Positions 10,636 to 37,488 of a DNA stretch of 64,000 nucleotides are shown here, piece after piece. Position 1 is the stretch's first letter, and each line of letters starts with the position of its first letter. Source of the stretch: Gillisia mitskevichiae (GTDB lineage: Bacteria > Bacteroidota > Bacteroidia > Flavobacteriales > Flavobacteriaceae). The notes under the pieces were generated by a model, which had not been told where the DNA came from, searched no databases, and saw only the letters and a program-made list of their open reading frames with translations. The stretch is from NCBI RefSeq assembly GCF_003634585.1, contig NZ_RBLG01000002.1, positions 1,054,001-1,118,000 of the forward strand. The letters run 5' to 3'. The position numbers and the translations under genes are program-made.

Positions 10636-10643
10636 TATCTTTG
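10636..10643 (+). promoter_or_regulatory. -7 promoter element for the structured RNA / ssrA
   Basis: TATCTTTG fits TAnnTTTG exactly and ends 5 bases before the first stem of the structured RNA. It is the only good promoter match before ssrA, so it may serve both. Confidence 0.65.
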
Positions 10644-10648
10644 CAGCC

Positions 10649-10743
10649 GCGTTAGGGATAGAAGTGAAAATCCCAGTTTAATTTTTTTTTGAAATTAAAC
10701 TGGATTGAAGCGGATAGCCCGGTCCCGCAGATGCGGGAAACGC
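10649..10743 (+). ncRNA. structured RNA upstream of tmRNA (Flavo-1-like candidate)
   Basis: A compact set of helices: outer GCGTT/AACGC closing the element, GGGAT/ATCCC, a 12-base-pair CCAGTTTAATTT/AAATTAAACTGG hairpin, and CCCGCA/TGCGGG at the 3' side. Single-stranded GAAGTGAAA and GAAGCGGA segments look conserved in type. It starts directly after a TAnnTTTG element and ends 20 bases before ssrA. I recall similar GCGTTAGGGAT...GAAGCGG sequences as recurrent in flavobacterial genomes (possibly the Flavo-1 Rfam family), but that name is from memory and unverified. Confidence 0.6.
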
Positions 10744-10763: not shown

Positions 10764-11165
10764 GGGGTCGACTTGGATTTGACAGCGAGTCTAATTGGAT
10801 AGTAAGCACGTCGAGCGCTGAGATATAGCTCGTAAATCTCATATTTCACACTTTTTTAAACGGCGAGAATAACTACGCCTTGGCTGCATAATCCGAATTA
10901 CAGTAGGATTATCTTTATCCCTACCAGGTAGGGAGCCGAGATGCCTCGTGAAAGCCTTGATTTACGGCGTTCACACCAGAGGTATCGATAAAGTAAATAT
11001 AGGAATTGCAGGGTCTTGATGTAATTCCGAAACTCAATTGAGAATACGTGTAAGATTGGTGGTTTTCGGCCGGTCTTGCATCGACAATTAAGTGAAAACT
11101 AAGCGTGAAGAAAGCTATGTTAATTGCTTGTTTGGACGAGGGTTCGAAACCCTCCGACTCCACCA
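10764..11165 (+). ncRNA. ssrA: transfer-messenger RNA (tmRNA)
   Basis: Rescues stalled ribosomes by adding a degradation tag. The 5' end GGGGTCG pairs with CGACTCC at the 3' end, followed by A and the encoded CCA (11163-11165). The T arm is GAGGG TTCGAAA CCCTC with its canonical TTCGAA loop. The tag reading frame at 10862-10891 reads GENNYALAA and then TAA, the expected Bacteroidetes-type tag (the preceding resume Ala is charged on the RNA itself). The length of 402 bases is normal for a one-piece tmRNA. The 3' end doubles as the attachment site of the integrative element that follows. Confidence 0.97.
11142..11163 (+). repeat. attL: 22-bp direct repeat in the tmRNA 3' end
   Basis: Twenty-two bases beginning GTTCGAAACCC and ending GACTCCAC, covering the T loop and acceptor strand of ssrA, recur exactly at 36980-37001 just outside the recombinase gene. 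This is the classic use of the tmRNA T-arm/acceptor region as an attB core by tyrosine recombinases, with the tmRNA restored at the left junction. Confidence 0.9.
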
Positions 11166-12234: not shown

Positions 12235-12815
12235 TTAATGTGTTCTAAAGCTATTATGCTTAGTGTTAAATCTTACCGAAACAAAAACTTCAAAAAGGTA
12301 CAGCATTACTTCCTCTTTATGTTGAGCGAAATTGTTTTGTTCATGTGCCTCAAGGTCTTGATCGTAGAATTTAATCATGGAAATTTCACAGTTCAATAAA
12401 TCATTACGTTCTGATTCAAAAGCTTCGATATATCTTTTATCTGAAGTATCTGGATATTTATTTTTTGCAATTCTATGAGCCAATGTTGCTGTTGAACTTG
12501 TACCTCCTTTTTGATGATCTAAGATTCTCTTTATCACATTTCTAGAAATTCCACAGTAAAAAGGTTCATCATCCTTTAAAAACATATAAAGTCCGGCAAA
12601 ATCCTCCGTTATAGATATAGGTTGTCGATTATTGTAGTCAAAAACTTTTTGATTTAATCTGTCTATTGCTGTTACGGGTCCTACAGCTTCCAGCGTACCT
12701 TGATCGTTAGTGAAACATTTATAAGAAATTTTATTTTCTATAGGTCTCCATTACTCACGGAGCTTTTGTAATTCACAAAGAATTTAGTAAGGTTGTTTAC
12801 TTTTAAATCGTTCAA
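12235..12815 (-). pseudogene. GIY-YIG-type nuclease-like gene, apparently frameshifted near its 5' end
   Basis: The ATG at 12585 starts a 116-residue frame (MFLKDDEPFYCGISRNVIKR), but coding-like sequence extends upstream in that frame to a TAA at 12753: WRPIENKISYKCFTN, then AVGPVTAIDRLNQKVFDYN, then FAGLYMFLKDDEPFYCGIS. With GLY before the ATG and YCGIS after it, the GIY-YIG motif spans the ATG, so the real protein must start earlier. A second frame, LNDLKVNNLTKFFVNYKSS (from TTG 12815), joins it only through a one-base frameshift near 12740-12755. The family uses an Arg and a distal Glu as catalytic residues; R and E candidates exist but are not assigned. Either a decayed gene or a shift-dependent one. 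It follows the reverse transcriptase in the same direction. Confidence 0.55.
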
Positions 12816-12873: not shown

Positions 12874-14490
12874 TTACAATTTATTACCTTTTACTCTTTT
12901 TTCTCGTTCTCGTAATTTAGTTTCCGGACTCTTAATTAGGCGATGAAAATTTCTTTCAAATTTTCGAGTTTGTTTTTTGATTGTGTCTTCTCCTCCATTC
13001 AGTTCTTTCATCACATGGTTTACCTTATTAAGATAACTGAAATAATTCCCCCAATTGTAAGTCTTTTCAGGATCAGTAAGGTATTTGCCTGGATTTTTTG
13101 GATCAGGAATTCTTTTTAAAATTCGCTTACCACCGATTATGGTAAATCTTTTAATTAATTTTTGCTTAAACAATCCTTTTCCCTGGTGATGCTTCTTTCC
13201 AGCATAAAACTTCCCTCTTTTAATACTTCTTATCATACTTCGGTAATACCTTGATATTCCCTGTGTTTTTACATAAACACGCTTCCCGGTATATTCAAAT
13301 CCAAGGTATTCAAGTTGATAATCTGGGTTCACTTTACCATTTTCCCCTATCAATCCGCCTTTGTAATGTCCCGAACTATGATGATATTGATAAAGCTTTG
13401 TTTTATCTGGATGAATATCTAGTTTGCAAGTGCCTGAAATAGAATCGAGCATAGCATTATGAATTTCTGCTTCCGCTTCTAAAGGACAAATCAAAATCAA
13501 ATCATCACTATAACGCTGATAAAAACCCCCAACTGCCGATACCGCATCAAACATCTCTTCATCAAAAGATAACATATAAATATTTGCTAAAGTCGCACTC
13601 ATAGGGCTACCTTGAGGTATTCCTTTTTCGGAAAATGTATTCTTGTGGTTTTTGTCCCCTTTAAGTCCACGTCTCTCTGAATGCACTAAATATGTATGCT
13701 TCTTAAAAAATTCTTTTTTTTCACAAAAAGCAATTACATTTTCTCTTCTGAAATTTCTAAGCTTGGCAACTTTTTTTTGTTTCCATTCTGATATGCTGGG
13801 ATTATTTATTTTTTTGCGTTCTACCCATAACCTGTTATGAAAAGTATTATGAAGCTCATTTAATTTAACATAGCGTTTCTTTGTTAAAGCCCTATAAACA
13901 TTGTAATGATCATCTGGCATTGAAAGCCTTCCTTTGTCATCATATTGGCTCAGAATCCTTTTCCATTGTGTGTGAAGGATTCCATGATCGAGATTATCAA
14001 AAAAGTTTGATACATCTGCAACTATTACACTAACTGGTTTACCATCAAAATCGTTGATTGCTCTAAATGCATCATGAGCAAATTCAATATTAGATTTATT
14101 GCCTTTTTTACCTTTTTCCTGTCTTATTTTTCGATAAGCTACAGAACAGTGATTATAATTTTTATGCCTAATAAACCACTCGTACATTATACTTAGATAA
14201 TAACTATAATAGCTAAAAATCAATGAGTCCAAATGTGTAGCGTAGAGGATAGGTCTTTTTTTGGGGGGTTCCTTGACTTCTCTTACTCTTTTCCCAAATT
14301 CATTTTTCTCAGATCCTATTGCCCTATACTTACGCTGAATGATTTCACGCTTAATAAATGGTGTAAATCTATGTTTTCTTATTAATTCAGGATTAGTGAC
14401 GTAATCAACTAGCCAGCTTCTATCCTTCGGTTTGAAGGGTAGACCAATATGTGCGTATTGCTTTAATTTAAACCAATTATCTGTAGCCAT
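12874..14490 (-). CDS. reverse transcriptase of the unknown-group/DRT (defence-associated) type
   Basis: Protein of 538 residues. RT motif A is VIVADVSNFFDNLDH (catalytic D159), motif B GIPQGSPMSATLANIYM (near 291-306) and motif C RYSDD (D329, D330). A roughly 115-residue basic insertion (about 175-290) separates A and B, and the C-terminal 150 residues are basic, with no maturase, HNH or nuclease domain. It lacks the VTG motif and compact size of retron RTs and shows no group II intron RNA around it. Directly upstream lies a ~347-nt structured RNA, and the ATG is only 12 bases past that RNA's 3' stem. This fits defence-associated RTs with cognate RNA (DRT2- or DRT9-like). The exact class cannot be decided without a phylogeny. 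Confidence 0.85.
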   Translation of the reverse strand: MATDNWFKLKQYAHIGLPFKPKDRSWLVDYVTNPELIRKHRFTPFIKREIIQRKYRAIGSEKNEFGKRVREVKEPPKKRPILYATHLDSLIFSYYSYYLSIMYEWFIRHKNYNHCSVAYRKIRQEKGKKGNKSNIEFAHDAFRAINDFDGKPVSVIVADVSNFFDNLDHGILHTQWKRILSQYDDKGRLSMPDDHYNVYRALTKKRYVKLNELHNTFHNRLWVERKKINNPSISEWKQKKVAKLRNFRRENVIAFCEKKEFFKKHTYLVHSERRGLKGDKNHKNTFSEKGIPQGSPMSATLANIYMLSFDEEMFDAVSAVGGFYQRYSDDLILICPLEAEAEIHNAMLDSISGTCKLDIHPDKTKLYQYHHSSGHYKGGLIGENGKVNPDYQLEYLGFEYTGKRVYVKTQGISRYYRSMIRSIKRGKFYAGKKHHQGKGLFKQKLIKRFTIIGGKRILKRIPDPKNPGKYLTDPEKTYNWGNYFSYLNKVNHVMKELNGGEDTIKKQTRKFERNFHRLIKSPETKLREREKRVKGNKL

Positions 14491-14501
14491 AATGAAAAAA
14501 A

Positions 14502-14848
14502 AGAGCTGGTCGGGACTATATTGTCGCCTGTCTTAAGACTTGGTAGTACATCGGCTTGCTACTTTATCACGCAATATAATTACGCTTATAGATAGCGTCC
14601 CTACGCTAATTAGAATACTTATTGCTATATTAATAAATATATTAACGCCACTTAACATGACAGAATTACTTATCAACAGCATATCGCAGTTCCTTGTAAG
14701 GTTGCTCTTCTCTGACCGACTAACGGGAAGAGAGAACGTACCACACTTTGGAATGTTCAATCAAACTACGGACAACCCGTAGCTGGTTGTATTCCTACTC
14801 TACAGTAAGAATACCGTAAATAAACGTACTTACCGGCTAACCAGCTCT
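14502..14848 (-). ncRNA. structured RNA upstream of the reverse transcriptase, candidate RT template
   Basis: Read on the minus strand, the 347 nt are closed by a perfect 9-bp stem AGAGCTGGT/ACCAGCTCT (14848-14840 with 14510-14502). Inside are: an 11-bp stem GTATTCTTACT/AGTAGGAATAC (one G-U), CTACGG/CCGTAG, CTCTTC/GAAGAG, GCA-CCTT/AAGG-TGC, TAGCGT-AGGG-ACGCTA inside GCAATA/TATTGC, and the palindrome GTCTTAAGAC. Eight T follow the closing stem, then the RT ATG. One sense frame (14760-14536) has 75 codons without a stop while the other two frames carry many. In DRT2 systems such RNA is reverse-transcribed into tandem repeats encoding a stopless protein (Neo); here this is inference by analogy. 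Confidence 0.75.
14533..14682 (-). CDS. hydrophobic 49-residue frame inside the RT-associated RNA
   Basis: From ATG 14682 the stop-free frame encodes MLLISNSVMLSGVNIFINIA followed by a second hydrophobic run ending SVIILRDKVASR and stops at TAA 14535-14533. It reads as one long hydrophobic helix with a basic tail. Three interpretations: the translated portion of a Neo-like concatemer made only after reverse transcription, a conventional small membrane peptide encoded by the RNA, or a chance frame. No ribosome binding site is visible. I give low confidence to conventional translation. Confidence 0.35.
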   Translation of the reverse strand: MLLISNSVMLSGVNIFINIAISILISVGTLSISVIILRDKVASRCTTKS

Positions 14849-14979
14849 CATGCAAATATAATTTTTTTTTATTAGTCACTTAAAGCTTTTATATAATTAC
14901 TCATATTAGTTTTGAACCTGTAAACTTTTTTCAAATGATTACTAAGACTTATGTTTAAATTACAATTAGTTTCACCTCT

Positions 14980-16056
14980 CTACCATTTGCCATAAATTTT
15001 CTTATAAACATCCTCACCCCATCGGCTAACAAAATCATTTTTTCTTATTTGTCTTTCAATGTTCTGATTACTTATTTCCTCAGAGAATTCACTGGAGTTT
15101 TGAAAAATCGCAATATATAAATAGTAAAATTCAGGAATCTCTAAACATTTATATTTTTTGCTGCGATCTTTCTTTAGATCCATAATCAATCTTATAGCAT
15201 AATTTGGATCTCTCTCAAAATTTCTTATTTCAGGAATTAGCTCCTCATTTTTAAACTCAACATAATCATCATAAAAAACCTTTACCCTGGATAACATCTC
15301 ATTCAGAATTGATTGCCGATTTCGTTTAAGAAACTTTTCTAAATTCGGAAAATGAAGCCAGTTGTGTAAATATCTCTTATTTACTAAAATGCTTTTTACG
15401 TATTCAATTGAGTAATCCTCACTGCTTTTAAAATAATTTGAAAGATCTATTTCAAGAAAGCATAGATTCCTTTCAGTCAATCGTTCTTTCTTTTTATTTT
15501 CCACTTTATGGGTAACATAAATTTCAATATGAAGATTTCGATCCGTATTTTTTAATTGAAGCCTGAGATCTGGCGTCATGTCCTTTATCGATTTTTCCAC
15601 AAATAAATCGATATCGGATAAATCAAGTGTACAGCCTGGGAATACCTGAATTGCAGCTTTGTCCCAGTTTGTTAGGCAATGGCTAAATTCATAAGAATAA
15701 TAAACTTTATCTGGTACCTGGAAACCAAGCTTTTTCTCATAACTATTTATCTCGTCTTTAAAATATGGAATGAGCTCATTGAAGTAAAGTTTATAATCTG
15801 GTAGTTCAAATTTTTCTAATTCTTTGAGGACTTCTTTTGCCAAAATATGCAACATACTTTCATAACCAGTACATCCATTTTCGGGGCTGTGAGCGAAATG
15901 ATGATCTCTAATACTGCCTTTTTTAGCTGTAACCGGGGACTGACAGAAAGGATCTGGACACTTCAAATTAGGGTTAAATCCTCTTTTCACGGAGGAGTCA
16001 TTTATATCTATTAGATCACCATTCCTATCTAATACCTTTGGGAGCTTTAAGGCCAT
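14980..16056 (-). CDS. CoiA-like protein: zinc-finger-like N-terminus plus PD-(D/E)XK nuclease-like core
   Basis: Protein of 358 residues. The N-terminus has C33 and C38 (KCPDPFCQSP) and the DHHFAHSPENGC segment (H52-C62), the arrangement found in competence protein CoiA. A restriction-like core is suggested by MTPDLRLQLKNTDRNLHIEIYVTHKVENKKKERL (about 165-198), with D, ExEI-like strand and Lys in the PD-(D/E)XK order. Role unknown; family members are found in competence, phage and defence contexts. It lies upstream of the RT-associated RNA in the same direction, separated by about 130 bases, so read-through into the RNA is possible. Confidence 0.65.
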   Translation of the reverse strand: MALKLPKVLDRNGDLIDINDSSVKRGFNPNLKCPDPFCQSPVTAKKGSIRDHHFAHSPENGCTGYESMLHILAKEVLKELEKFELPDYKLYFNELIPYFKDEINSYEKKLGFQVPDKVYYSYEFSHCLTNWDKAAIQVFPGCTLDLSDIDLFVEKSIKDMTPDLRLQLKNTDRNLHIEIYVTHKVENKKKERLTERNLCFLEIDLSNYFKSSEDYSIEYVKSILVNKRYLHNWLHFPNLEKFLKRNRQSILNEMLSRVKVFYDDYVEFKNEELIPEIRNFERDPNYAIRLIMDLKKDRSKKYKCLEIPEFYYLYIAIFQNSSEFSEEISNQNIERQIRKNDFVSRWGEDVYKKIYGKW

Positions 16057-18034: not shown

Positions 18035-19516
18035 ATGAAAAAAGAAAAAATCACCCTATCCCAATTAGAACAATATTTATCTAAAGCCGCCTGGATTTTA
18101 AAAGGACCGGTAGATGCTTCAGATTTTAAGGTTTATATATTTCCTTTATTATTTTTCAAACGAATTTCGGATGTGTATGATGAAGAATATCAGCAAGCTC
18201 TTTCAGATTCCGAAGGAGATGATGAATATGCTTCTTTGCCCGAATTTCATCGTTTTGTAATTCCAAAAGGTTGTCATTGGAATGATGTACGGGAAACAAC
18301 AACTAATATTGGTTTAGCTATTGAAAAGGCACTTCGAGGAATAGAACAGGCTAATCAAGAATATCTTTATGGTATTTTCGGGGATGCCCAATGGAGTAAT
18401 AAAAACAAGCTTTCAGATAGGCTCTTAATTGATCTTATTGAGCATTTTTCACAATATGATTTATCAAATAGTAAGGTTGACAATGATTTGCTCGGACAAT
18501 CCTATGAGTATCTTATTAAACACTTCGCAGATCTTACTAACAAAAAAGCTGGAGAGTTTTATACACCAAGATCCGTAATTCATTTATTAGGTTTAATTCT
18601 TGATCCTCATGAGGGGGAAAGTATATACGACCCTGCTTGTGGAACTGGAGGCATGCTATTAGAATGTGTGGACCATCTAAAAGATAATCACGAAGATTAC
18701 CGCACCCTTAAACTATTTGGACAAGAAAAGAATCTTACTTCGAGTTCTATTGCCAGGATGAATATGTTCCTACATGGTATAGAAGATTTTCAAATCTTTC
18801 GTGGCGATACATTACGACAACCCGCTTTCTTTGAGGCAGATGGTCTTAAAACTTTTGATTGTGTGATAGCAAATCCACCATTTTCTTTAAAAGAATGGGG
18901 TGCTGAGAATTGGGCGAATGATCCATATGGAAGAAATATTGCAGGGATTCCTCCCAAAGGTAATGCGGACTTGGCTTGGGTACAGCATATGATCAAATCC
19001 ATGGATTCGAATGGACGCATGACGGTGGTACTCCCTCCGGGTGCTTTGTTTAGAAAAGGAGCAGAGGCAAAGATTAGAACTGAGTTACTGCAACAAGATT
19101 TACTGGAGGCAGTTATTGGCTTAGGTCCAAATATTTTTTATGGAGCACAGTTAGCAGCCTGTGTGATTGTTTTTAAGAAGAAAAAGGATGCAGTAAAAGA
19201 GGATAAGGTGCTGTTCATAGATGCTTCAGACCAAGTTAGAGTTGGACGAGCGCAAAATTACTTAGAACCTGAACATGTAAATCAAATTTTTGATTGGTAC
19301 AAAGCTTTTGAAAATGTAGAGAATTACGTTAAAATAGCCTCACAAACTGATTTAAAAGAAAACGATTATAACCTCAATATTCCTCTCTATGTAGAGAAAA
19401 TCATTGAAGATAATTTACCCTCCGTGGACGAAGCCTTGGCAGATTTAAAAGAAGCCTGGAATGAAAGCTTAATTGCAGAAGAAAAGTTCAAAACAATTTT
19501 AAAAGAATTTTTATAA
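18035..19516 (+). CDS. hsdM: type I restriction-modification methyltransferase subunit, first copy
   Basis: N6-adenine methyltransferase subunit of 493 residues. N-terminal HsdM domain (LEQYLSKAAWILKGPVDASD), SAM-binding motif I YDPACGTGG (about 198-206) and catalytic motif IV NPPF (N280-F283) are intact, as are RMNMFLHGIEDF and the C-terminal region. It opens a tightly packed operon: its TAA overlaps the ATG of the DUF262 gene by one base. A second, clearly different HsdM follows after that gene, so the holoenzyme could use a mixed M1-M2 pair or each copy may have its own partner. Confidence 0.95.
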   Translation: MKKEKITLSQLEQYLSKAAWILKGPVDASDFKVYIFPLLFFKRISDVYDEEYQQALSDSEGDDEYASLPEFHRFVIPKGCHWNDVRETTTNIGLAIEKALRGIEQANQEYLYGIFGDAQWSNKNKLSDRLLIDLIEHFSQYDLSNSKVDNDLLGQSYEYLIKHFADLTNKKAGEFYTPRSVIHLLGLILDPHEGESIYDPACGTGGMLLECVDHLKDNHEDYRTLKLFGQEKNLTSSSIARMNMFLHGIEDFQIFRGDTLRQPAFFEADGLKTFDCVIANPPFSLKEWGAENWANDPYGRNIAGIPPKGNADLAWVQHMIKSMDSNGRMTVVLPPGALFRKGAEAKIRTELLQQDLLEAVIGLGPNIFYGAQLAACVIVFKKKKDAVKEDKVLFIDASDQVRVGRAQNYLEPEHVNQIFDWYKAFENVENYVKIASQTDLKENDYNLNIPLYVEKIIEDNLPSVDEALADLKEAWNESLIAEEKFKTILKEFL

Positions 19517-21297
19517 TGGCGTACGAAACTCCAATAACCATTAAAAAGGCAATCGAACATATTAGAAAAAGAAAATATGTTCTGCCTTCAATTCAGAGAG
19601 AATTTGTTTGGAATACAGAACAAATTGAAAAATTATTTGATTCATTAATGAGAGAGTATCCAATAAGCACTTTCCTGTTTTGGAAAGTAGATAAGGATAA
19701 TATCAAAAATTTTCAATTTTACGAATTTCTTAAGCATTACCACGAGAAAAATGCAAAACATAATACTAAAGTAGATCTTGGAAACGATGAAGATGTAATT
19801 GCAATTCTTGATGGGCAACAAAGAATGACCTCTTTGTTTATAGCTTTAACAGGTACTTACACTAAGAAATTGCCTTATTACAGTTGGGATAATCCAAATG
19901 GATTTCCTTCTAAAAAATTATATCTCAATTTGTTAGCTAAGGCTAATGATATAGAAATGGAATTTGACTTTAAATTTTTGACTGAAAAGGAAGTTTTAGA
20001 AACGAAGAATAAATATTGGTTTGAGACTTCGGAGATTATGGAGTTAGAGGATATGGGAAAAGTTTCAAAATATCTTTCTAGAAATAACCTAATGGATTCT
20101 TCTATATATAATGAAAATCAAAGGGATTTCGCTATTGACACACTTACCTCCTTTTTTAATGTGATACACCAAAAAGGTACTATTAGTTATTATCTTGAAG
20201 AAGACGAGGAATTGGATAAAGTTCTTCAAATTTTTATTAGAATAAATAGTGGTGGCACCAAACTCAGTTATTCAGATTTACTTTTATCAATTGCAACAGC
20301 GCAATGGAAAGAAAAAGATGCGAGAGAAGTTATTCATGAGTTTGTAGATGAAATAAATGCAATTGGAGATGGTTTTGCCTTTAATAAAGATTTTGTTCTA
20401 AAGTCTTGCTTAGTGCTAGCAGATTTCAATGACATTAAATTCAAGGTTGACAATTTCACAAAAGAGAACATGAAGGTGATAGAGTCTAACTGGGAGAAGG
20501 TCTCATCCTGCGTTCGTAAAGCAATTGAGCTAGTTTCAAAATATGGTTACAATCGTGATAATTTATTAGCAACAACCGCTATAATTCCTATAGCTTATTT
20601 TATTTATACTAATAACTTTGAAGATTCTATTCTACATTCTTCCTCAAGAGAAAATGATCGTAGAGCTATAAAAGAATGGCTTGCTCGAGTACTCCTTAAA
20701 GGAACTTTTGGTGGAACTCCAGATGCTATTTATCCGGTAATGCGAAACTTAATGAATGAACACAAGGAAAGGTTCCCATTAGAAGAAATTATTGATTATT
20801 ATAAAGGTAGAAGAAAATCTATTTCTTTTACAGAAGATGATATAACCAATATTCTGGAAATGGATTATGGTAAAGCGAGAACTTATTGTGCATTAACCTT
20901 ATTATATCCCTCTCTCAATTATAATTTTAAATACCATCAAGATCATATTCATCCAAAATCATTTTTTAATAAAAGAAAACTTGTGGAATTGGGAATTGAA
21001 GATGAGGATCTGAAAGAAAAATTTACAGCTCGTTTTAATAAGTTACCAAATCTCCAATTATTACAGGCAAACCAAAATATAGAAAAAAGTGATATTTATT
21101 TTGAAGAATGGATAAGTAAAACCTTTCCAAATGAATTAGATACCCAATCTTTTTTAATGCAAAATCATATTAAGACCAATCAGTCACTGAAATTTGAAGA
21201 TTTTTTAGATTTTTATGAAGTAAGAAAAACTGTCCTAGAGAAAAAGTTAAACACCATTTTGAATGTGAAACAGGTGGAAACCACAGAAATTAACTAA
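19516..21297 (+). CDS. GmrSD-like DUF262/DUF1524 protein embedded in the type I operon
   Basis: Protein of 593 residues. The N-terminal DUF262 part has PSIQREFVWNTEQIEKLFDS and the nucleotide-binding-like ILDGQQRMTSLF (about 95-107), then FIRINSGGTKLSYSDLLLS (about 236). The C-terminal DUF1524 part carries an HNH-like HQDHIHPKSFFNKR (about 475-488) and NKLPNLQLL. This is the single-chain GmrSD arrangement, a type IV family that cuts glucosyl-hydroxymethylcytosine phage DNA, and is also like BREX-associated BrxU. The start overlaps the hsdM stop and the stop abuts the ATG of the second hsdM without a gap, so it is translationally coupled between the two. Confidence 0.9.
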   Translation: MAYETPITIKKAIEHIRKRKYVLPSIQREFVWNTEQIEKLFDSLMREYPISTFLFWKVDKDNIKNFQFYEFLKHYHEKNAKHNTKVDLGNDEDVIAILDGQQRMTSLFIALTGTYTKKLPYYSWDNPNGFPSKKLYLNLLAKANDIEMEFDFKFLTEKEVLETKNKYWFETSEIMELEDMGKVSKYLSRNNLMDSSIYNENQRDFAIDTLTSFFNVIHQKGTISYYLEEDEELDKVLQIFIRINSGGTKLSYSDLLLSIATAQWKEKDAREVIHEFVDEINAIGDGFAFNKDFVLKSCLVLADFNDIKFKVDNFTKENMKVIESNWEKVSSCVRKAIELVSKYGYNRDNLLATTAIIPIAYFIYTNNFEDSILHSSSRENDRRAIKEWLARVLLKGTFGGTPDAIYPVMRNLMNEHKERFPLEEIIDYYKGRRKSISFTEDDITNILEMDYGKARTYCALTLLYPSLNYNFKYHQDHIHPKSFFNKRKLVELGIEDEDLKEKFTARFNKLPNLQLLQANQNIEKSDIYFEEWISKTFPNELDTQSFLMQNHIKTNQSLKFEDFLDFYEVRKTVLEKKLNTILNVKQVETTEIN

Positions 21298-22761
21298 ATG
21301 ACCCAAAAAGAATTAGAAAAATATCTCTGGGGTGCCGCTGTTCAACTTAGAGGGACGATAGATGCCGGAGATTATAAACAATATATTTTCCCATTATTAT
21401 TCTACAAAAGAATATGCGATGTATATGATGAAGAATTTGAAATTGCTTTAAAGGAAAGCAATGGCGATATAGAATATGCTTCTTTTGCAGAAAATCATCA
21501 TTTTCTGGTGCCAGAAGATACTCATTGGAATACCGTGAGAGAAACCACCACTAATGTTGGAATGGCGCTTCAAGAAGCTATGAGGGCTATAGAGAAGACT
21601 AATCCAGACACCTTATATGGAATTTTTGGAGATGCTTCTTGGACCAATAAAAACAGGTTAAGTGATGAAACGCTCACTAACCTTATAGAACACTACTCTC
21701 AGCATAAATTAAGCTTAAGCAATATTCCAGATGATAAGCTTGGGAATGCCTATGAATATTTGATTAAGGAATTTGCAGACGATAGCGGGCATACCGCTGC
21801 CGAATTCTATACCAACCGTACCGTAGTAAAGTTAATGACAATGATCATGGACCCGCAACCCGGGGAATCTGTGTACGATCCTACCTGTGGTTCTGGTGGC
21901 TTGTTGTTGAATTGCGCTTTACATTTAAAAGAAGAAGGAAAAGAATATAGAAACTTAAAGTTATATGGGCAGGAGATTAACCTGCTTACCTCTGCCATTG
22001 CGCGTATGAATATGTTTATGCACGGCATAGAGGAGTTTAGCATTATACGTGGAGACACTTTAGCAAATCCAGCATTCTTACATAATGATGAATTGAAGAA
22101 GTTTAATGTAATATTAGCTAATCCACCTTATTCCATTAAATCCTGGGACCAAAAATCCTTTATCAATGATCCTTATGGGCGTAACCTTTGGGGAGTACCA
22201 CCGAAAGGTTGTGCAGATTATGCTTTCCAGCAACATATACAAAAGAGTTTAGATAATGAAAATGGCCGTTCAATTTCTTTATGGCCTCATGGAGTTCTGT
22301 TTAGGGATTCTGAAGTAGAGATGAGAAGAAAAATGATCGAAGAAGATGCAGTAGAATGTGTAATTAGTTTGGGCCCTAATTTATTCTATAATTCTTCAAT
22401 GACATCTTGCTTATTAATTACGAATAACAATAAAACTCCTGATAGAAAAAACAAAATTCTATTCGTACAAGCCGTGAATGAAGTAAGAAATGAAAAGACA
22501 ATGAGCTATTTAGATCCTCAACATGTTGAAAGGATACATAATGCTTATTTGAGTTTCAAAAATGAAGAAAATTTTTCAGCCGTAATTGATAAGGAAGAAA
22601 TTTTAAAAGACAAGAACGTAAGAATAAGTGTACAGTTATTTGTGAAAGCAGATAAAATTGATGAAGAATCTTTTGAAGTAATTCTTGAAGAATGTGAACA
22701 AAGCTCTATTTCACTTAAAAGCTCTATGGATGAACTCTTTAAAACCTTAGGCAATGGATAG
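21298..22761 (+). CDS. hsdM: type I restriction-modification methyltransferase subunit, second copy
   Basis: Protein of 487 residues, homologous to the first HsdM but diverged across its length. Motif I is YDPTCGSGG (about 196-204) and motif IV NPPY (about 278), so it too should be catalytically competent. The N-terminus LEKYLWGAAVQLRGTIDAGD parallels the first copy. It overlaps hsdS by 8 bases, which suggests this copy is the direct partner of HsdS. Together with the first copy it makes an operon with two methyltransferase subunits and one specificity subunit. Confidence 0.95.
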   Translation: MTQKELEKYLWGAAVQLRGTIDAGDYKQYIFPLLFYKRICDVYDEEFEIALKESNGDIEYASFAENHHFLVPEDTHWNTVRETTTNVGMALQEAMRAIEKTNPDTLYGIFGDASWTNKNRLSDETLTNLIEHYSQHKLSLSNIPDDKLGNAYEYLIKEFADDSGHTAAEFYTNRTVVKLMTMIMDPQPGESVYDPTCGSGGLLLNCALHLKEEGKEYRNLKLYGQEINLLTSAIARMNMFMHGIEEFSIIRGDTLANPAFLHNDELKKFNVILANPPYSIKSWDQKSFINDPYGRNLWGVPPKGCADYAFQQHIQKSLDNENGRSISLWPHGVLFRDSEVEMRRKMIEEDAVECVISLGPNLFYNSSMTSCLLITNNNKTPDRKNKILFVQAVNEVRNEKTMSYLDPQHVERIHNAYLSFKNEENFSAVIDKEEILKDKNVRISVQLFVKADKIDEESFEVILEECEQSSISLKSSMDELFKTLGNG

Positions 22762-23977
22762 TATATTAATGGAAAATAAGGTTTTGAATTTAGACAAGTC
22801 AAATTGGAAATTAGCTAAGCTGGGGGACTTGGCAAATGATATCTCAAAACGTGTTGATAATCCAAGTAAATCAGAATATGACCGGTTCGTAGGGCTCGGA
22901 AATTTCGTGTCTGGTGATATTAAAATTAGAACTTGGGAAACCACTGAAAACCTTGCCTCCTCAGCAAGAGCTTTCCAAGCTGGAGATATCCTTTTTGCTA
23001 GACGTAATGCTTATTTGAGACGAGCTTCCTTAGTCGAATTCGATGGCTGCTGTTCCGGGGACGCTTTTGTATTAAGAGAAAATCACAATAAAGTAGTAAC
23101 CGGTTTTTTAGCATTTTTATTAAATTCTAATGCTCTGTGGGATTTTGCAAATTCAAATGCGGCAGGCACAATGTCTAAACGTGTGAAATGGCGAGATCTA
23201 GAAGAGTATGAGTTTCTTCTTCCACCCAAAGACCAACAAGTCCAACTTGCTAAATTATTTTGGGCGATGGATAATGTGATAGAGAAGGAAACTGAAATGT
23301 TATTAAATTGCGAGACTCTTAGAGATGTTAACAGGGAAAGATTATACACTTTTGGTATTTCTGCTATGAATGGATTGAAAATATCCACTAGAAAGGGACA
23401 TTCTGGTATAATTCCTGTAAAATGGGACGAAAGAAAGTTTTTAGAAATTGTTAAAATCACAAGTGGTCAAGTTGATCCCACAGATGAGCAATTTAAAAAT
23501 TTGTACCAAATTGGATCAGAAAGGATTGAACCAAATACTGGAAAAATCACTGAGTTTAAAACTGCACAAGAGTTAAATATTACAAGTGGAAATTTCTTAT
23601 TCACTAAGGAACATATAATATATTCTAAAATTAGACCATATTTTAAAAAGGTTGCTAATCCAAATATTATGGGGTTATGTAGTGCAGATATTTACCCATT
23701 GCTGCCTAATCAAGATATCATTAGCAAGGAATTTCTGTTTTTTTATTTGTTGACAGAAAAATTTACTCAAAGTATTTTAAGGTTTCAAAATAGAACAGGA
23801 ATGCCTAAAGTTAATAGGGACGAACTTGGAGCAATATATATACCAATTCCTAAGGCTGAAGAACAAAGGAAAATTGTGAAAATATTGACAGGGATAGATA
23901 ATTCAAGAAATCATATACTTTCAAAATTAGCAACATCCAAAGCCCTTCAAAAGAGTTTAATCAATCAGGTATTTTAG
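22754..23977 (+). CDS. hsdS: type I restriction specificity subunit
   Basis: DNA-recognition subunit of 407 residues with two target recognition domains. The first includes LGDLANDISKRVDNPSKSEY and GDILFARRNAYLRRASLVEFDGCCSGDAFVLR and ends before the coiled coil at LPPKDQQVQLAKLFWAMDNVIEKETEML; the second includes SGQVDPTDEQFKN, IIYSKIRPYFKK and the final coiled coil IPIPKAEEQRKIVKILTGID. The tandem layout gives a bipartite site. ATG 22754 overlaps hsdM; an ATG at 22769 is a possible alternative start. Confidence 0.93.
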   Translation: MDSILMENKVLNLDKSNWKLAKLGDLANDISKRVDNPSKSEYDRFVGLGNFVSGDIKIRTWETTENLASSARAFQAGDILFARRNAYLRRASLVEFDGCCSGDAFVLRENHNKVVTGFLAFLLNSNALWDFANSNAAGTMSKRVKWRDLEEYEFLLPPKDQQVQLAKLFWAMDNVIEKETEMLLNCETLRDVNRERLYTFGISAMNGLKISTRKGHSGIIPVKWDERKFLEIVKITSGQVDPTDEQFKNLYQIGSERIEPNTGKITEFKTAQELNITSGNFLFTKEHIIYSKIRPYFKKVANPNIMGLCSADIYPLLPNQDIISKEFLFFYLLTEKFTQSILRFQNRTGMPKVNRDELGAIYIPIPKAEEQRKIVKILTGIDNSRNHILSKLATSKALQKSLINQVF

Positions 23978-23989
23978 AAAAAAAGGGTC

Positions 23990-24349
23990 ATGAGAAAAAA
24001 CCAACTTATAGGCTTTGTTAACCATAATTATAATGGTCTTTTATCTGCGGCTAACACCAGTTTTGGGAGTATAAATAAATCTAAAGAAGTTTGGTGGTTA
24101 AATATTCCAGTTCATAAATTTAATGATGATGTGCATTTACTGTTAAATGTTTCTAATTACTCAATCTGGCTTTGCTTACCAAAAGGATTTGCAAAGGGAG
24201 TCCCTTTCAAGATTCGTGAAGATAAAAATGCAGTGGATTTAGAAATTTCAGCAGATAAAAGCATTCAATATTTAAAAGATGTAAAGTCTGGCGGGACTGG
24301 ATTTGATTTTAAGCCTTATGTAAAGGAGAAATTTAAATTTATTGATTAA
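23990..24349 (+). CDS. hypothetical protein in the restriction operon
   Basis: Protein of 119 residues I do not recognise. It lacks a signal peptide or membrane segment and has no obvious catalytic motif; the most distinctive stretch is KEVWWLNIPVHKFNDDVHLLLN. It starts 12 bases after hsdS and overlaps the next gene by one base (TAATG), so it belongs to the operon and its product probably acts with the Cas4-like nuclease. Confidence 0.75.
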   Translation: MRKNQLIGFVNHNYNGLLSAANTSFGSINKSKEVWWLNIPVHKFNDDVHLLLNVSNYSIWLCLPKGFAKGVPFKIREDKNAVDLEISADKSIQYLKDVKSGGTGFDFKPYVKEKFKFID

Positions 24350-25524
24350 TGCCACATTCTATGACTGATTTGCTTATCCAAGAAAAACTTCCAGAAAATC
24401 CCCAATTCTCTGATTTGGATATGATTTTTTTGGTGTTTCTTTTAAAAAAGATTGGTTTTAAGGATGAAAAGAGATTAATCGCATATTTAGAAGGGGTAAT
24501 AAAAGTTTATGGCAAAAACGAGAAGACTAGGATTTCGAGATATCATGGAGGGAGAAGCATCACTAATTATAATTCCTCCCGTTGTTTTGGGTTGCTGAGT
24601 ATGGAAATTGCAATAAGAGAAAATCTTGAACTAATAGTTTCTATAGATAGTAAACATAATTCACTAATTAGCGCAACGGACCTTGCCAATTTTTGTTTTT
24701 GTCCTGTTAGTTATAGTATTTCTAAATCCTTGGAAGTAAAATTCCCCACCAATCTACGCTCAAGGTCAATTGGAACCGGTTTACATGAGCAATTAAGACT
24801 AATTTCCCGGTTACCTAAACAATATTTGGAAAATACAGATAGCAAGAATTATACACCCGAGGCGCAGAAGATTAAAAAGATTAGAGGTTGCAAACTTATT
24901 TTCGCTGGTCACACTAAGGAAAGGAAAGTTTTTATAAATGAATCTGAGAAATTCATTGGTCAGCCAGATTATATTTTTCAAGATCCAAATGGGGATTATT
25001 TTGTGGTGGAAGAAAAATTTCATGCTGTTCAACCAGGACAATATGATAATCAACTAGTACAATTACAGGCTTACATAGCATACATTACGGAATACGATAT
25101 AAAATATGGTGTATTAATAAATTGGAGTTACGATTTTCATTTCCAAACTTATGAGCCATTTATTAATGATGTTAAAATTAAGGTGGTAAAAAGTGAAAAA
25201 GACTTTTCATTATTAACCAAAATTCATCATCAACTTAAAGTTTTTCAGAATAAAAAAGAATTGAATTTATCCCGAAATCCTAATGTTAACAAATGTATTT
25301 CCTGTGTTGTAAATAAATATTGTTCTCATAAAGCAGGTTACCAAACTAAGGTTAAATTTCCTTACAAGAGAGATGATCTCAGATTAAAAAAAGTCAAGCA
25401 ACCTGAGGTTTTATGGGAATATATAAGGGATAAACCTACTATAGATATTGTGGAACTTTATGATTATGAAAATGAATTTACTGTAAATACTCAAAGCGAA
25501 ACTTCAAGGAGGGGAAAAATTTGA
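24349..25524 (+). CDS. Cas4-like PD-(D/E)XK nuclease with cysteine cluster
   Basis: Protein of 391 residues. The C-terminal two-thirds match the Cas4/DUF83 exonuclease family: ISATDLANFCFCPVSYSI (about 104-121, first cysteines), HEQL (about 144), GQPDYIFQ...YFVVEEKF (about 204-221; D, E and K of the nuclease core), the QLVQLQAYI motif and a C-terminal cluster CISCVVNKYC (about 307-316) that could hold a Fe-S cluster. The N-terminal ~100 residues are a separate unknown domain. No CRISPR array or cas1/cas2 is present, so the protein is not a CRISPR adaptation factor here; it may process DNA ends for the restriction system. Confidence 0.75.
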   Translation: MPHSMTDLLIQEKLPENPQFSDLDMIFLVFLLKKIGFKDEKRLIAYLEGVIKVYGKNEKTRISRYHGGRSITNYNSSRCFGLLSMEIAIRENLELIVSIDSKHNSLISATDLANFCFCPVSYSISKSLEVKFPTNLRSRSIGTGLHEQLRLISRLPKQYLENTDSKNYTPEAQKIKKIRGCKLIFAGHTKERKVFINESEKFIGQPDYIFQDPNGDYFVVEEKFHAVQPGQYDNQLVQLQAYIAYITEYDIKYGVLINWSYDFHFQTYEPFINDVKIKVVKSEKDFSLLTKIHHQLKVFQNKKELNLSRNPNVNKCISCVVNKYCSHKAGYQTKVKFPYKRDDLRLKKVKQPEVLWEYIRDKPTIDIVELYDYENEFTVNTQSETSRRGKI

Positions 25525-25628
25525 AAAACAAGTTTTAAGTTAGAACAGACGAAGTATTTCATATCGCGATTTACGATATAGTATTAAAAATGAAAGTTAA
25601 GAAAGCATTTTACCCTATTTAATGGAAA

Positions 25629-25754
25629 CTTGGAGCTCGTTTATAATAAAGGATTGCTGGAGGATGAATTACCGGTGCATATACACCCCCTTATACAGGA
25701 AGAAATTATGTATATAGTGATAGAAAAGATAAATCATATATTAAAAAATAACCA
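25629..25754 (+). pseudogene. short remnant of an unknown gene, possibly DegT/DnrJ-type aminotransferase C-terminus
   Basis: Between the nuclease gene and hsdR one frame reads LVYNKGLLEDELPVHIHPLI and then a helix ending IVIEKINHIL, with a layout like the C-terminal region of DegT-family aminotransferases (P-x-HP-x-I...EE...VIxxIN). No start is present. This is a weak call from pattern only. Confidence 0.2.
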
Positions 25755-28721
25755 ATGGCCTTCAACGAACTCAACAGTGTAGAACACTACATCATCCACA
25801 AACTAAGTGGAGATAATTTAAATAATGGAGAAGCTCAAGAGCCCATCTCAGGATATTCTCCCCACTGGAAGTTCAAAGCATCTAAAGACTTAGACAGATC
25901 TATTAATGAGGTTTTAATTGAGCCTGATTTAAACGATGCACTTGTGCGTTTAAATCCTGAAATAAAGTCTAGACCAGAGTTAGCGGAGGAAGTGATTTAC
26001 AAACTCCGGGCTATTTTGATTTCGGTGAATCAAATTGGGTTAGTTAAAGCTAATGAGGAGTTTTTTAAATGGTTAGCGGGTGAAAAAACCATGCCTTTTG
26101 GTGAGAATAATAGACATGTCCCGGTAAGGTTAATAGATTTTAAAGATCATTCCAACAATGAATATATAGTTACAAACCAATTTCATATCCATCATCGTGA
26201 GACCAAAATTCCGGATGTTGTTATGATGATTAATGGCATCCCAGTTGTTATAGGAGAGGCCAAAACACCTATTCGTCCATCGGTAAGCTGGTTAGATGGA
26301 GCTCATGAAATTCATGAGATTTATGAAAATGCAGTTCCTCAATTATTTGTTCCCAACATTTTGTCATTTGCTACAGAGGGTAAAGAATTATATTTTGGTC
26401 CTATTCGTACTCCCTTAGAATTCTGGGCACCTTGGAGGTTAGAAAATGATGACCAAGCATTAGCAAAACATTTTGGCTTAGGTGAAGTTGGAAAAGAGCT
26501 TTTAGACCTTTTACATCCCGCCAGATTATTAGATATACTTCAAAACTTCTCCCTTTTCACCACCAATAAAAAAAGGCAGAGAATGAAAGTGATTCCTCGC
26601 TTTCAGCAATATGAGGGCGCAAATAAAATTGTAGAAAGAGTTAAGGAGGGTTTAATTAAAAAAGGATTGATCTGGCATTTTCAGGGCTCTGGAAAATCAC
26701 TGTTGATGGTTTTTGCAGCCCAGAAACTTCGAAAATCCCCGGAATTAAAAAGTCCTACGGTTCTAGTTTTGGTTGATAGAATAGACCTAGATACTCAAAT
26801 TAGTGGGACGTTTAATGCTGCAGATATAGCCAATGTAGAATCTACTGAGAGTATTGGTGAATTACAGCGGATGCTAGAAAGGGATACGCGTAAAATTATT
26901 ATATCTACGATCTTCAAATTTAGGGACGCTAAACCTAACATGAATACTAGAGATAATATAATTGTCTTAGTAGATGAGGCTCACAGAACACAGGAAGGTG
27001 ACTTAGGTAGAGAAATGCGGGCCGCTTTGCCAAATGCCTTTTTATTCGGACTTACTGGAACTCCAGTTAATAAGGCTGATAAAAACACGTTCTGGGCTTT
27101 CGGAGCTGAAGAAGATCAAGGTGGTTATATGTCCAGATATACCTTCCATGATTCGGTAAGAGATAACGCTACTTTAAAATTACATTTTGAACCTCGCTTA
27201 GTAGATGTTCATGTCGATAAAGAAGCAATAGATAAAGCCTTCGAAGAATTTAAGGAAAGTTCTGCACTCTCAGATGAAGAGGCAGATGCATTGAACCAGA
27301 GATCAGCAAAAATGGCTGCGTTTTTAAAATCCCCTGAGAGAGTTGAAAGAATTGTAGAAGACATCTCAAATCACTTTAAGGAAAAAGTTGAACCTCATGG
27401 CTTCAAAGCTATGATCGTAACTCCAGACAGACATGCGTGTGTTCAATATAAAGAGGAGCTTGACAAATATTTTTCTGAGCAAACAAGCCAAGTTGTAATT
27501 TCAACTACAGCTAATGATCCTTTAGAATTTAAACAGAAGTGGGGAATTGATAAAAGTGCACAGGAAAAAATAATTGATAAGTTTAATGATGCTTCATCAG
27601 AATTAAAATTCATAATTGTTACCGCAAAGCTATTAACAGGATTTGATGCTCCAATACTTCAAACCATGTATCTGGATAAATCTATAAAGGATCACACCCT
27701 TTTGCAGGCTATATGTAGAACTAATAGGTTATATCCTAAAAAGACATTCGGTAGAATAGTTGATTATTTCGGAGTGTTTGATGATGCTGCTAAAGCACTT
27801 CAATTCGATGAAGAAAGCGTAAAACAGGTAATTTCCAACTTATCTAAGTTACGAGATGAATTACCAAAAGCCATGCAGGATACATTGGCACATTTTGAAG
27901 GAGTAGATAGAGCCATTCTTGGTTTTGAAGGTCTGGAAGCAGCACAAAACGCAATTGATACTAATGATAAAAAAGATGCTTTTGCGAGGGATTATAAATT
28001 TCTCTCTAAGCTTTGGGAATCCTTATCTCCTGATAGAATGTTAGATATTTATAATACAGATTATAAGTGGCTTTCTCAGGTATTCGAATCAGTAAAACCA
28101 GCATCTAATAATATTGGAAAACTTTTGTGGTTTACACTGGGAGCACAAACAACTAAACTTATTCATGAAGGTATACATGTAGGGCAAGTTCACACATTAG
28201 ATGAATTTATCTTAGATGCAGATGTAATTGAAGATATTTTCAATAACCCAGATCCTAAACGAGCAAGAACCCTGGAGCAAATGCTCATAAAGCGATTTAA
28301 GAAGCATCAGGGAGACCCTAAATTCAAAAAACTGAGTGAGCGCTTGGAAAAGCTTAGAGAACGAGCAGAACAAGGTTTAATCACTTCTATAGAATTTGTA
28401 AAAGAACTCTGTAAATTGGCTAAAGAAACGGTTCAGGCGGAAAAGGAAGCCGCTGCAAATATTCAACTGAAAACGCCAAGGGCTGCCTTATCAGATCTAT
28501 TTTCAGAATTGAAATCAGATCAAACTCCTGCAGTGGTTGAAAGAATTGTAGATGACATAGACAGTATTGTAAGGGTTATAAGATTTCCTGGATGGCAAAC
28601 TACAAGTTCTGGAGAAAGGGAGGTACAGCAGTCCCTGCGAAAACAACTTTTAAAATATCAACTACACAAAGATCAAGTTCTATTTGATAGGGCTTATGCA
28701 TATATCAAGGAGTATTATTAA
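25755..28721 (+). CDS. hsdR: type I restriction endonuclease/translocase subunit
   Basis: Motor and nuclease subunit of 988 residues. The N-terminal nuclease domain shows VVMMINGIPVVIGEAKTP (E-x-K of the PD-(D/E)XK core, about 155-172); the helicase core has HFQGSGKSLLMVFAAQKL (Walker A, about 308), LVDEAHRTQEGDLGREMR (DEAH, about 409), GLTGTP and LLTGFDAPILQTMYLDKSIKDHTLLQAICRTNR. Length and layout are normal. It is separated from the preceding gene by 230 bases and probably has its own promoter, which would allow methylation to precede cleavage after transfer. Confidence 0.95.
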   Translation: MAFNELNSVEHYIIHKLSGDNLNNGEAQEPISGYSPHWKFKASKDLDRSINEVLIEPDLNDALVRLNPEIKSRPELAEEVIYKLRAILISVNQIGLVKANEEFFKWLAGEKTMPFGENNRHVPVRLIDFKDHSNNEYIVTNQFHIHHRETKIPDVVMMINGIPVVIGEAKTPIRPSVSWLDGAHEIHEIYENAVPQLFVPNILSFATEGKELYFGPIRTPLEFWAPWRLENDDQALAKHFGLGEVGKELLDLLHPARLLDILQNFSLFTTNKKRQRMKVIPRFQQYEGANKIVERVKEGLIKKGLIWHFQGSGKSLLMVFAAQKLRKSPELKSPTVLVLVDRIDLDTQISGTFNAADIANVESTESIGELQRMLERDTRKIIISTIFKFRDAKPNMNTRDNIIVLVDEAHRTQEGDLGREMRAALPNAFLFGLTGTPVNKADKNTFWAFGAEEDQGGYMSRYTFHDSVRDNATLKLHFEPRLVDVHVDKEAIDKAFEEFKESSALSDEEADALNQRSAKMAAFLKSPERVERIVEDISNHFKEKVEPHGFKAMIVTPDRHACVQYKEELDKYFSEQTSQVVISTTANDPLEFKQKWGIDKSAQEKIIDKFNDASSELKFIIVTAKLLTGFDAPILQTMYLDKSIKDHTLLQAICRTNRLYPKKTFGRIVDYFGVFDDAAKALQFDEESVKQVISNLSKLRDELPKAMQDTLAHFEGVDRAILGFEGLEAAQNAIDTNDKKDAFARDYKFLSKLWESLSPDRMLDIYNTDYKWLSQVFESVKPASNNIGKLLWFTLGAQTTKLIHEGIHVGQVHTLDEFILDADVIEDIFNNPDPKRARTLEQMLIKRFKKHQGDPKFKKLSERLEKLRERAEQGLITSIEFVKELCKLAKETVQAEKEAAANIQLKTPRAALSDLFSELKSDQTPAVVERIVDDIDSIVRVIRFPGWQTTSSGEREVQQSLRKQLLKYQLHKDQVLFDRAYAYIKEYY

Positions 28722-36979: not shown

Positions 36980-37001
36980 GTTCGAAACCCTCCGACTCCA
37001 C
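36980..37001 (+). repeat. attR: second copy of the 22-bp ssrA-end repeat
   Basis: Identical to 11142-11163. It lacks the rest of tmRNA (AAA directly before it, TATGAAG after it), so it is the right junction of the element. Confidence 0.9.
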
Positions 37002-37488
37002 TATGAAGCGCAGCTATGCTGCGGATTAAAAAAATAAAAATCTGCCAAGTATTTTCACTTGAGCAGATTTTTTGTTTTTAAGACGCCCGGGCCGTAGGAA
37101 CGGTAAAGCACTGCGGCATTTCCTAATAGGGAGCACTAGGGTTCTATTTTTATTCAAGCCTCCGACTCCACAATCAATCGGAAATTCCGAAATGGATTAA
37201 AAATTATAAATTCCCGTCAGGTATTTTCACCTGAACGGGAATTTATAATTTAAGACATCGACGACCTTAGTCGTCGGGAAGTTCCAATTGCAGGATGGGA
37301 GCACTAGGGTTCTATAAACCCTCCGACTCCACTTGAAGCGGTAAATCCGTAACAGATCAAAACTAACGGATTCCCGTCAAGCTCGCTTGAACGGGAATTT
37401 TTATTTTAAGACATCGACGACCTTAGTCGTCGGGAAGTTCCATTTGCAGGATGGGAGCATTAGGGTTCTATAAACCCTACGACTCCAC
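37002..37488 (+). repeat. tandem array of three degenerate ssrA-end (att-like) units
   Basis: After attR, the acceptor-like string CTCCGACTCCAC recurs at 37160-37171, 37321-37332 and, with one change, 37477-37488, every ~160 bases. The last three carry a T-arm-like AGGGTTCTA...AACCCT or a remnant of it. Between them each unit has a strong hairpin (for example ATTCCCGTCAGGT/ACCTGAACGGGAAT) and, in the second and third, CGACGAC-CTTA-GTCGTCG followed by GGGAAGTTCCA. Units two and three are nearly the same; the first is diverged. This looks like repeated capture of the ssrA 3' end. Confidence 0.7.

What the first reader, a model, noticed from the sequence alone, without database searches (positions are those of the whole stretch)
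12874..14848. Reverse transcriptase preceded by a structured RNA with a 75-codon stop-free frame: a candidate DRT2/Neo-like defence system
Directly seen: a 538-residue RT with complete A, B and C motifs (D159, PQGSP, YSDD) and no maturase or nuclease domain; just upstream on the same strand, 347 nt closed by a 9-bp stem with at least six internal helices; inside it one sense frame (14760-14536) free of stops for 225 nt while the other two frames carry many stops. Established: DRT2 reverse-transcribes its RNA by rolling circle to a concatemer encoding the hydrophobic Neo protein, and stop-free template is its hallmark. Inferred: this is a Bacteroidetes relative or a new class. The predicted peptide is hydrophobic and helical, as Neo is. 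Repeat length is unknown; a TAA at 14535-14533 must lie outside it. DRT9, with a cognate RNA and poly(A) cDNA, is the main alternative.
Basis: partly seen in the sequence, partly recalled or inferred. Interest (0 to 1): 0.88.

Follow-up and report, generated by a model that had tools for sequence, protein, structure and literature searches.

The report
Bacteroidota DRT2 with hidden antisense gene
A Bacteroidota genome carries a divergent version of a known antiviral reverse transcriptase, and comparison with its relatives suggests that the RNA beside it hides a repeat which, copied over and over into DNA, would become an endless gene read from the opposite strand to the one first proposed.

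Summary
In detail: a 538-aa reverse transcriptase (RT) preceded by a strongly folded 347-nt RNA with a 75-codon stop-free sense frame. The RT is of the DRT2/UG2 group (PADLOC Drt2 E=2e-129), in a divergent Bacteroidota clade below NCBIfam's Drt2 cut-off. The DRT2 reading is well supported; the proposed Neo frame is on the wrong strand. Published Neo is antisense to the ncRNA, and here antisense runs of 60 codons or more occur in 28 of 28 loci, sense runs in 13. Short direct repeats (ATTC in the window) mark the template ends and give a 138-nt, 46-codon repeat. In 23 loci of the clade the repeat is 126-198 nt, always a multiple of three (at least 13 length changes on the tree), with an open antisense frame across the junction. 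In 19 of 23, joining the ends rebuilds a Bacteroidetes-type promoter instead of the sigma-70 type of Klebsiella DRT2; the window and its two closest relatives keep only the TTTG half. Nothing was measured: function is inferred from sequence comparison and published DRT2 experiments. New variant of a known kind.

The parts
12874..14490 (-). DRT2/UG2-group reverse transcriptase, 538 aa
   Evidence: PADLOC Drt2 E 2.1e-129; NCBIfam NF041746 322 bits, cut-off 390; best PDB chain 9c0i, named Drt2, E 2.1e-48; motifs
14502..14848 (-). cognate structured ncRNA, about 347 nt
   Evidence: z -4.75; helices with compensatory changes in relatives
14853..14860 (-). predicted genomic -7 element TATATTTG for the ncRNA; with the -12..-5 placement of PMC9723704 transcription would start at 14848
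   Evidence: TAnnTTTG shortly before the RNA in L002 (window), L001 and L003; consensus and placement
14839..14848 (-). 5' arm of terminal stem P1
14502..14511 (-). 3' arm of terminal stem P1
14823..14834 (-). 5' arm of long-range helix P2
14542..14552 (-). 3' arm of P2
14751..14754 (-). jump motif 1 (ATTC), 5' end of the template, counted in the repeat
14613..14616 (-). jump motif 2 (ATTC), just 3' of the template
14617..14754 (+). predicted cDNA repeat unit, 138 nt, one open antisense frame across the junction: LIAILINILTPLNMTELLINSISQFLVRLLFSDRLTGRENVPHFGI
14657..14659 (+). predicted neo start codon ATG
14747..14750 (+). -33-like TTTG at the 3' end of the repeat unit
14634..14641 (+). best but poor -7 candidate, TAAATATA, 21 nt after TTTG across the junction; two mismatches to TAnnTTTG

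Best explanation
A divergent Bacteroidota DRT2-type defence system. The RT binds the upstream ncRNA. On phage infection it would copy a 138-nt template (ncRNA 14754 to 14617); the cDNA end made on ATTC-1 (14754-14751) would re-pair with ATTC-2 (14616-14613) and start again, giving head-to-tail repeats. After second-strand synthesis the repeats would be transcribed antisense to the ncRNA and translated into a stop-free chain of hydrophobic 46-residue repeats (Neo) that arrests the cell. In most relatives the junction assembles a Bacteroidetes-type promoter. Shown by computation here: RT group, RNA structure, repeat geometry, divisibility by three, kept antisense openness, promoter in 19 of 23 loci. 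Inferred from KpDRT2: RNA binding, phage trigger, template jumping, second strand, toxicity.
For: Drt2 431 bits, next profile of another group 78. Antisense runs of 60 codons or more in 28 of 28 loci (window included), sense in 13 of 28. From end homology alone, the right pair of alignment columns ranks 1 of 93 in group B (6 loci), 1 of 124 in C (4), 2 of 78 in D (4), tied 3-5 of 307 in A (3, window included), with every length divisible by three and every unit open. 21 of 21 units divisible by three and antisense-open; 1.7 open expected from shuffles. Motif-only scan: top hit at score -1 or better, divisible by three and open in 15 of 23 antisense, 0 of 23 sense, 0.09 expected. Promoter at the junction in 19 of 23, in 6 of the 7 loci fetched after the idea was written down. 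At least 13 length changes on the RT tree. In homologous columns the jump motif changed at both ends together in L035, TTTC/TTTC, against ATTC/ATTC in its group. Known-type control L056 (Photobacterium Drt2): TTGACA-N17-TATAAT, 111 nt, open; 111 nt is a published length.
Against: No cDNA, RNA or phage data. NCBIfam Drt2 cut-off not reached. No good -7 box at the junction in the window, L001, L003 or L058. In the window's 64 kb, TTTG-N20-TAnnTTTG occurs 0 times among 84 TAnnTTTG, so the 20-nt spacing is not seen as the host's favourite. No purifying selection on Neo residues in 9 of 10 pairs; in L004/L035 the Neo frame is more alike than chance (2 of 500) but so is a sense frame (0 of 500). Sense frame also open across the unit in 10 of 21, window included. 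Control L057 not recovered. L042's top motif-only hit is 140 nt; its 141-nt unit was picked by hand. Anchors of groups A-D were chosen by eye before lengths were computed; those of L033, L034, L036 and L042 after seeing scan output that showed frame status. Second-clade relatives gave no convincing junction.
Confidence: 0.87

Rival explanations
1. One reading: Neo is read from the sense frame 14760-14536, same strand as the ncRNA.
For: 75 sense codons free of stops; the sense frame is open across the predicted repeat in the window.
Against: Closed in L001 and L003, open in 10 of 21 units; no junction with promoter, divisibility and open frame on the sense strand, 0 of 23; published Neo is antisense.
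Confidence: 0.04
2. DRT9- or DRT10-like: the RNA templates a homopolymer or short tandem repeat, with no encoded protein.
For: These too pair an RT with an ncRNA (PMC12632851 passages); UG17 (DRT10) is the best profile outside Drt2.
Against: Drt9 41 bits and UG17 78 bits against Drt2 431; lengths divisible by three and stop-free over at least 13 length changes have no reason in a non-coding product.
Confidence: 0.04
3. The antisense openness is a by-product of RNA composition and structure; the RT copies the RNA but no protein matters.
For: No clear purifying selection on residues; sense frame open in 10 of 21.
Against: 1.7 of 21 open expected from shuffles, 21 seen; divisibility by three; in-frame ATG within the first 75 nt in 23 of 23 units; promoter at the junction in 19 of 23.
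Confidence: 0.05

Closest known systems
KpDRT2 (Klebsiella pneumoniae DRT2; PMC12039810, PMC11100668)
   Same: DRT2-group RT with upstream ncRNA; direct repeats at the template ends; repeat divisible by three; antisense stop-free hydrophobic frame with an ATG not far after the junction; promoter split across the junction (in 19 of 23 clade loci).
   Different: RT 538 aa (425 in PDB chain 9c0i; that this chain is the Klebsiella protein is recalled); ncRNA about 347 nt (281 published); repeat 138 nt, 126-198 in the clade (111-129 published for 42 close homologues); jump motifs ATTC, ATACC, TATT and others instead of ACA; Bacteroidetes -33/-7 promoter instead of TTGACA/TATAAT.
DRT9 (poly-U tract copied to poly-dA)
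   Same: RT plus ncRNA defence system
   Different: RT profile far weaker (41 vs 431 bits); a long template divisible by three instead of a homopolymer tract
DRT10 / UG17
   Same: RT plus ncRNA, tandem-repeat cDNA
   Different: UG17 profile 78 bits only; no coding repeat in the passages read

Membership tests
DRT2 (UG2) | RT matches Drt2 profiles far above other RT groups | tested here: met
   PADLOC Drt2 430.8 bits, next RT_UG17 77.8; 9c0i E 2.1e-48
DRT2 (UG2) | NCBIfam Drt2 equivalog cut-off (390 bits) | tested here: not met
   322.4 bits for the window, 327.9 for L006; all 11 members of A2 hit the model, the other scores are not shown
DRT2 (UG2) | structured ncRNA immediately upstream, same strand | tested here: met
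DRT2 (UG2) | template bounded by ACA-1 and ACA-2 | tested here: not met
   the matching pair is ATTC/ATTC in the window, other motifs in relatives
DRT2 (UG2) | repeat divisible by three, antisense frame stop-free across the junction | tested here: met
   138 nt, one antisense frame open; 21 of 21 units
DRT2 (UG2) | promoter rebuilt across the repeat junction | tested here: inconclusive
   19 of 23 clade loci, Bacteroidetes type; window only TTTG
DRT2 (UG2) | pseudoknotted 3' scaffold held by a long thumb and a fingers insertion | not tested
   no structure prediction or pseudoknot search was run
DRT2 (UG2) | phage-triggered concatemeric cDNA, toxic Neo, defence | not testable with these tools
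   needs experiment
DRT9 | Drt9 RT profile as best match | tested here: not met
   41.1 bits against 430.8 for Drt2
Group II intron RT / retron | maturase or retron RT model above its cut-off | tested here: not met
   group_II_RT_mat 71.8 (cut-off 300), retron_St85 45.8 (cut-off 235)

The most novel reading that the evidence does not exclude
In the window's own trio (window, L001, L003) the 18 nt that span the junction, TTTGGAAT|ACTTATTGCT, are identical (some other stretches of the unit are too), while the host-type -7 box of the sister groups is missing. The junction may therefore assemble a promoter for something other than the host's main sigma factor, for instance an alternative sigma or a phage polymerase. 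Wilkinson et al. speculated that some DRT2 systems rebuild phage-specific promoters (discussion section read). The neo gene would then be switched on only by the infecting phage's own transcription.
Probability: 0.08. Interest if true: 0.85.

Novelty: new variant of a known kind. Interest (0 to 1): 0.6.

Why it matters
Tang et al. (section 10 read) could model the ncRNA of more divergent DRT2 clades but found Neo annotation 'more challenging' there and left open other mechanisms. Here the repeat, the jump motif and the Neo frame are predicted for a Bacteroidota clade. In most of it the hidden promoter looks like the host phylum's own type, so the same trick would have been refitted to another transcription machinery. 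It gives exact tests and a rule (a short motif shared by both template ends) for finding Neo without the ACA motif.

Tried and rejected
Sense-strand Neo: rejected. Purifying selection on the Neo peptide: 10 pairs, no clear signal; one pair (L004/L035) above chance, but in a sense frame too. Sigma-70-type promoter at the junction in 8 clade loci (L002, L001, L003, L006, L008, L013, L033, L037; best two hits of each shown): three hits are divisible by three and open (L008 99 nt, L013 99 nt, L033 159 nt), all with poor scores (0.8 to 1.8 against -1.6 for the control) and none at the length found by comparison; L003's entries with an empty unit are artefacts of the script. Second clade (L016-L026, L030 and others): no consistent junction; of the comparative groups E1 gave two weak column pairs, E2, F and G none; 11 of the further loci L038-L055 were scanned, L040, L045, L051, L053 and L054 were not. 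Viral contigs: the pattern scan found no relative. Rfam: no family for 14400-15000 up to E = 1. Spacing of -33/-7 boxes in the window: no peak, 0 at 20 nt. RT or Neo structure prediction: not run. Rows dropped: L029 and L031 (RT fragments) not extracted; L027 and L028 extracted, not grouped; L043 (frameshifted RT) left out of the 23, and looked at later it has a 114-nt open unit with CTTG-N20-TAACTTTA as second-ranked hit; nine rows left out of the tree (L027, L028, L032, L040, L043, L045, L051, L053, L054). One search used 6 of 7 group B loci (not L032) and 4 of 5 D-like loci (not L042). My first extraction ignored the strand of minus-strand loci and was redone. In one search some patterns also gave distances not divisible by three (L003 263, L011 358, L013 133), one locus (L005) gave none; one pair per locus was taken for 15 of 16. 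In one search the anchor words for L034 hit a wrong place (302 nt); its unit was taken from the scan instead.

Full report
Observation. The RT at 12874-14490 (-) has 538 residues with Asp159, PQGSP and YSDD and no Pfam domain above cut-off other than RVT_1. The RNA before it (14502-14849) folds far better than shuffles (z = -4.75, 0 of 100) and is closed by a 10-pair stem. The sense frame 14760-14536 exists exactly as described, but 1.8% of shuffles have a run that long. The antisense strand has an 81-codon run over the same stretch.

Identity of the RT. Best profile is Drt2 (430.8 bits, E 2e-129); the next group, UG17, has 78 bits, Drt9 41. NCBIfam's Drt2 model scores 322, under its cut-off of 390. 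The best solved relatives are chains named Drt2 (9c0i and others, E 2e-48). In a tree of 47 RTs (quick method, SH-aLRT only) the window sits with L001 (uncultured Mesonia, 74% over 519 columns) and L003 (support 100), next to group B (99), in a clade of 22 Bacteroidota RTs (support 86) beside a second clade of 23 (support 90). The genome searches covered 397, 395, 395 and 201 genomes of family, order, phylum and another family, with 28, 4, 10 and 16 matching at the thresholds set; the sets overlap.

Which strand. In both papers on KpDRT2, Neo is antisense to the ncRNA (PMC11100668 section 8; PMC12039810 passages and section 9 part 1). In the 420 nt upstream of the RT start, 28 of 28 loci (groups A-E, window included) have an antisense stop-free run of at least 60 codons; 13 of 28 have a sense run that long.

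Where the repeat ends are. I first noted by eye short direct repeats at the two ends of the variable part and then measured them: one pair in each of 15 of 16 loci, all distances multiples of three, 129 to 162 nt (other matches of the patterns are listed under Tried and rejected). A check that ranks alignment column pairs by shared motif only puts this pair first of 93 in group B (6 loci), first of 124 in C (4), second of 78 in D (4), and tied third to fifth of 307 in the window's trio A, where sequences are similar; in every group all its lengths are divisible by three and all units antisense-open, and in A it is the only one of the six pairs shown of which that holds. In D one further pair of the six shown also has that property. 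Within group B the motif at homologous columns is TTTC/TTTC in L035 and ATTC/ATTC in the other five. For the window the unit is 14617-14754, 138 nt.

Coding signal. For 21 loci every unit is divisible by three and antisense-open across the junction; 1.7 open would be expected from shuffles; the sense strand is open in 10 of 21, including the window but not L001 or L003. Two more units (L037, 153 nt; L058, 162 nt) come from the scans. On the RT tree the 22 labelled loci need at least 13 changes of unit length; if unconstrained, each would keep the frame one time in three. All 23 units have an in-frame ATG within the first 75 nt. The peptides are hydrophobic (window GRAVY 0.80, z 2.3; z 0.9 to 3.9 over 21 units). 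Against strong constraint on the residues: in 10 pairs of equal-length units there is no clear third-position excess; 9 pairs are no more alike in the Neo frame than expected; L004/L035 is (2 of 500 random versions as good), but a sense frame is too (0 of 500). Wilkinson et al. likewise attribute most conserved Neo residues to nucleotide-level motifs.

Promoter. Flavobacterial sigma-A promoters carry TAnnTTTG at -12 to -5, and a minor class (SM5) TAnnTTGY (PMC9723704, passages); the -33 TTG element is recalled knowledge. Joining the unit ends gives NTTG, 20 nt (19 in L033), then TAnnTTTG or TAnnTTGY with at most one mismatch in 19 of 23 loci; spacings of 18-21 were allowed. The idea was written down from L006, L008 and L013; of the seven clade loci fetched afterwards (L033-L037, L042, L058) six have the promoter, L058 does not. 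A scan that scores only the sigma-A motif and at least 3 nt of end homology, blind to length and frame, has a top hit of -1 or better that is also divisible by three and open in 15 of 23 loci on the antisense strand, 0 of 23 on the sense strand, 0.09 expected from shuffles. Of these 15, L013 counts with 141 nt although 162 nt, its second hit, is the unit used elsewhere. The window, L001 and L003 keep TTTG next to the junction but have no matching -7 box. Spacing in the window's own 64 kb shows no preference for 20 nt (0 of 84 boxes). As a check of method, the Photobacterium Drt2 locus L056 gave TTGACA-N17-TATAAT with a 111-nt open unit; the Psychrobacter locus L057 was not recovered.

The ncRNA itself. 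In the trio a TAnnTTTG box lies shortly before the RNA (window 14860-14853), which would start transcription at the first base of the terminal stem. In the trio 16 of 92 predicted pairs show a compensatory change, some of them in the terminal stem; in groups A and B together 12 of 28 do, including the long-range helix around (A/G)CGUU, while the terminal stem is not predicted there. Rfam has no match.

Surroundings. The locus sits in a mobile island: the 3' end of the tmRNA gene (11142-11163) is repeated exactly, 22 bp, at 36980-37001, next to a tyrosine integrase (35555-36817). The island also holds type I restriction genes and a GmrSD-type protein. The RNA has one copy in the genome.

Literature. 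No paper describing Neo or its promoter in Bacteroidota DRT2 was seen in the listings of four searches, which show 25 of 536, 17 of 17, 15 of 9,653 and 30 of 51 papers (one search listed no DRT2 paper). 'Bacteroid' occurs in none of four DRT papers searched inside. Supplements could not be read, among them fig. S6 of Tang et al. on divergent clades, nor the final version of that preprint.

Conclusion. By RT and by repeat geometry this works like DRT2. It lacks the ACA-bounded template of the Klebsiella type and falls under the NCBIfam cut-off, so I call it a divergent Bacteroidota variant of DRT2. All functional steps remain to be measured.

Noticed in passing
window 11142-11163 and 36980-37001: 22-bp exact copy of the tmRNA gene's 3' end bounds a roughly 26-kb island with a tyrosine integrase (35555-36817); further partial copies at 37316-37332 (17 nt) and 37472-37542 (86% over 71 nt) may mark nested or earlier insertions.
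   Followed up: partly
window 18035-28721: Defence genes: HsdM-like methylase 18035-19516 (Pfam) and a second ORF 21298-22761 that looks alike but was not scanned; GmrSD_N protein 19516-21297; PD-(D/E)XK/Cas4-like 24349-25524; HsdR 25755-28721.
   Followed up: no
window 14980-16056 and 12235-12585: Neighbours of the RT: a protein with a CoiA-type N-terminus, and a short GIY-YIG-like ORF below Pfam's cut-off.
   Followed up: no
L016-L026, L030: Second Bacteroidota DRT2 clade: antisense runs of 60 codons or more in 12 of 12, but no convincing junction; in L016, L018 and L030 the antisense strand shares ATGTCATC, a possible Neo start.
   Followed up: partly
L003 and L030 (genome G054, contig 2): One genome carries members of both DRT2 clades about 47 kb apart.
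   Followed up: no
window 10641-10728: Flavo-1 RNA (Rfam) directly beside the tmRNA gene.
   Followed up: no
window 31663-33971: Primase-like BT4734_N protein (PADLOC RTasVirE-PriCT2, PrimPol) and a DUF5906 protein, probably replication genes of the mobile element.
   Followed up: no
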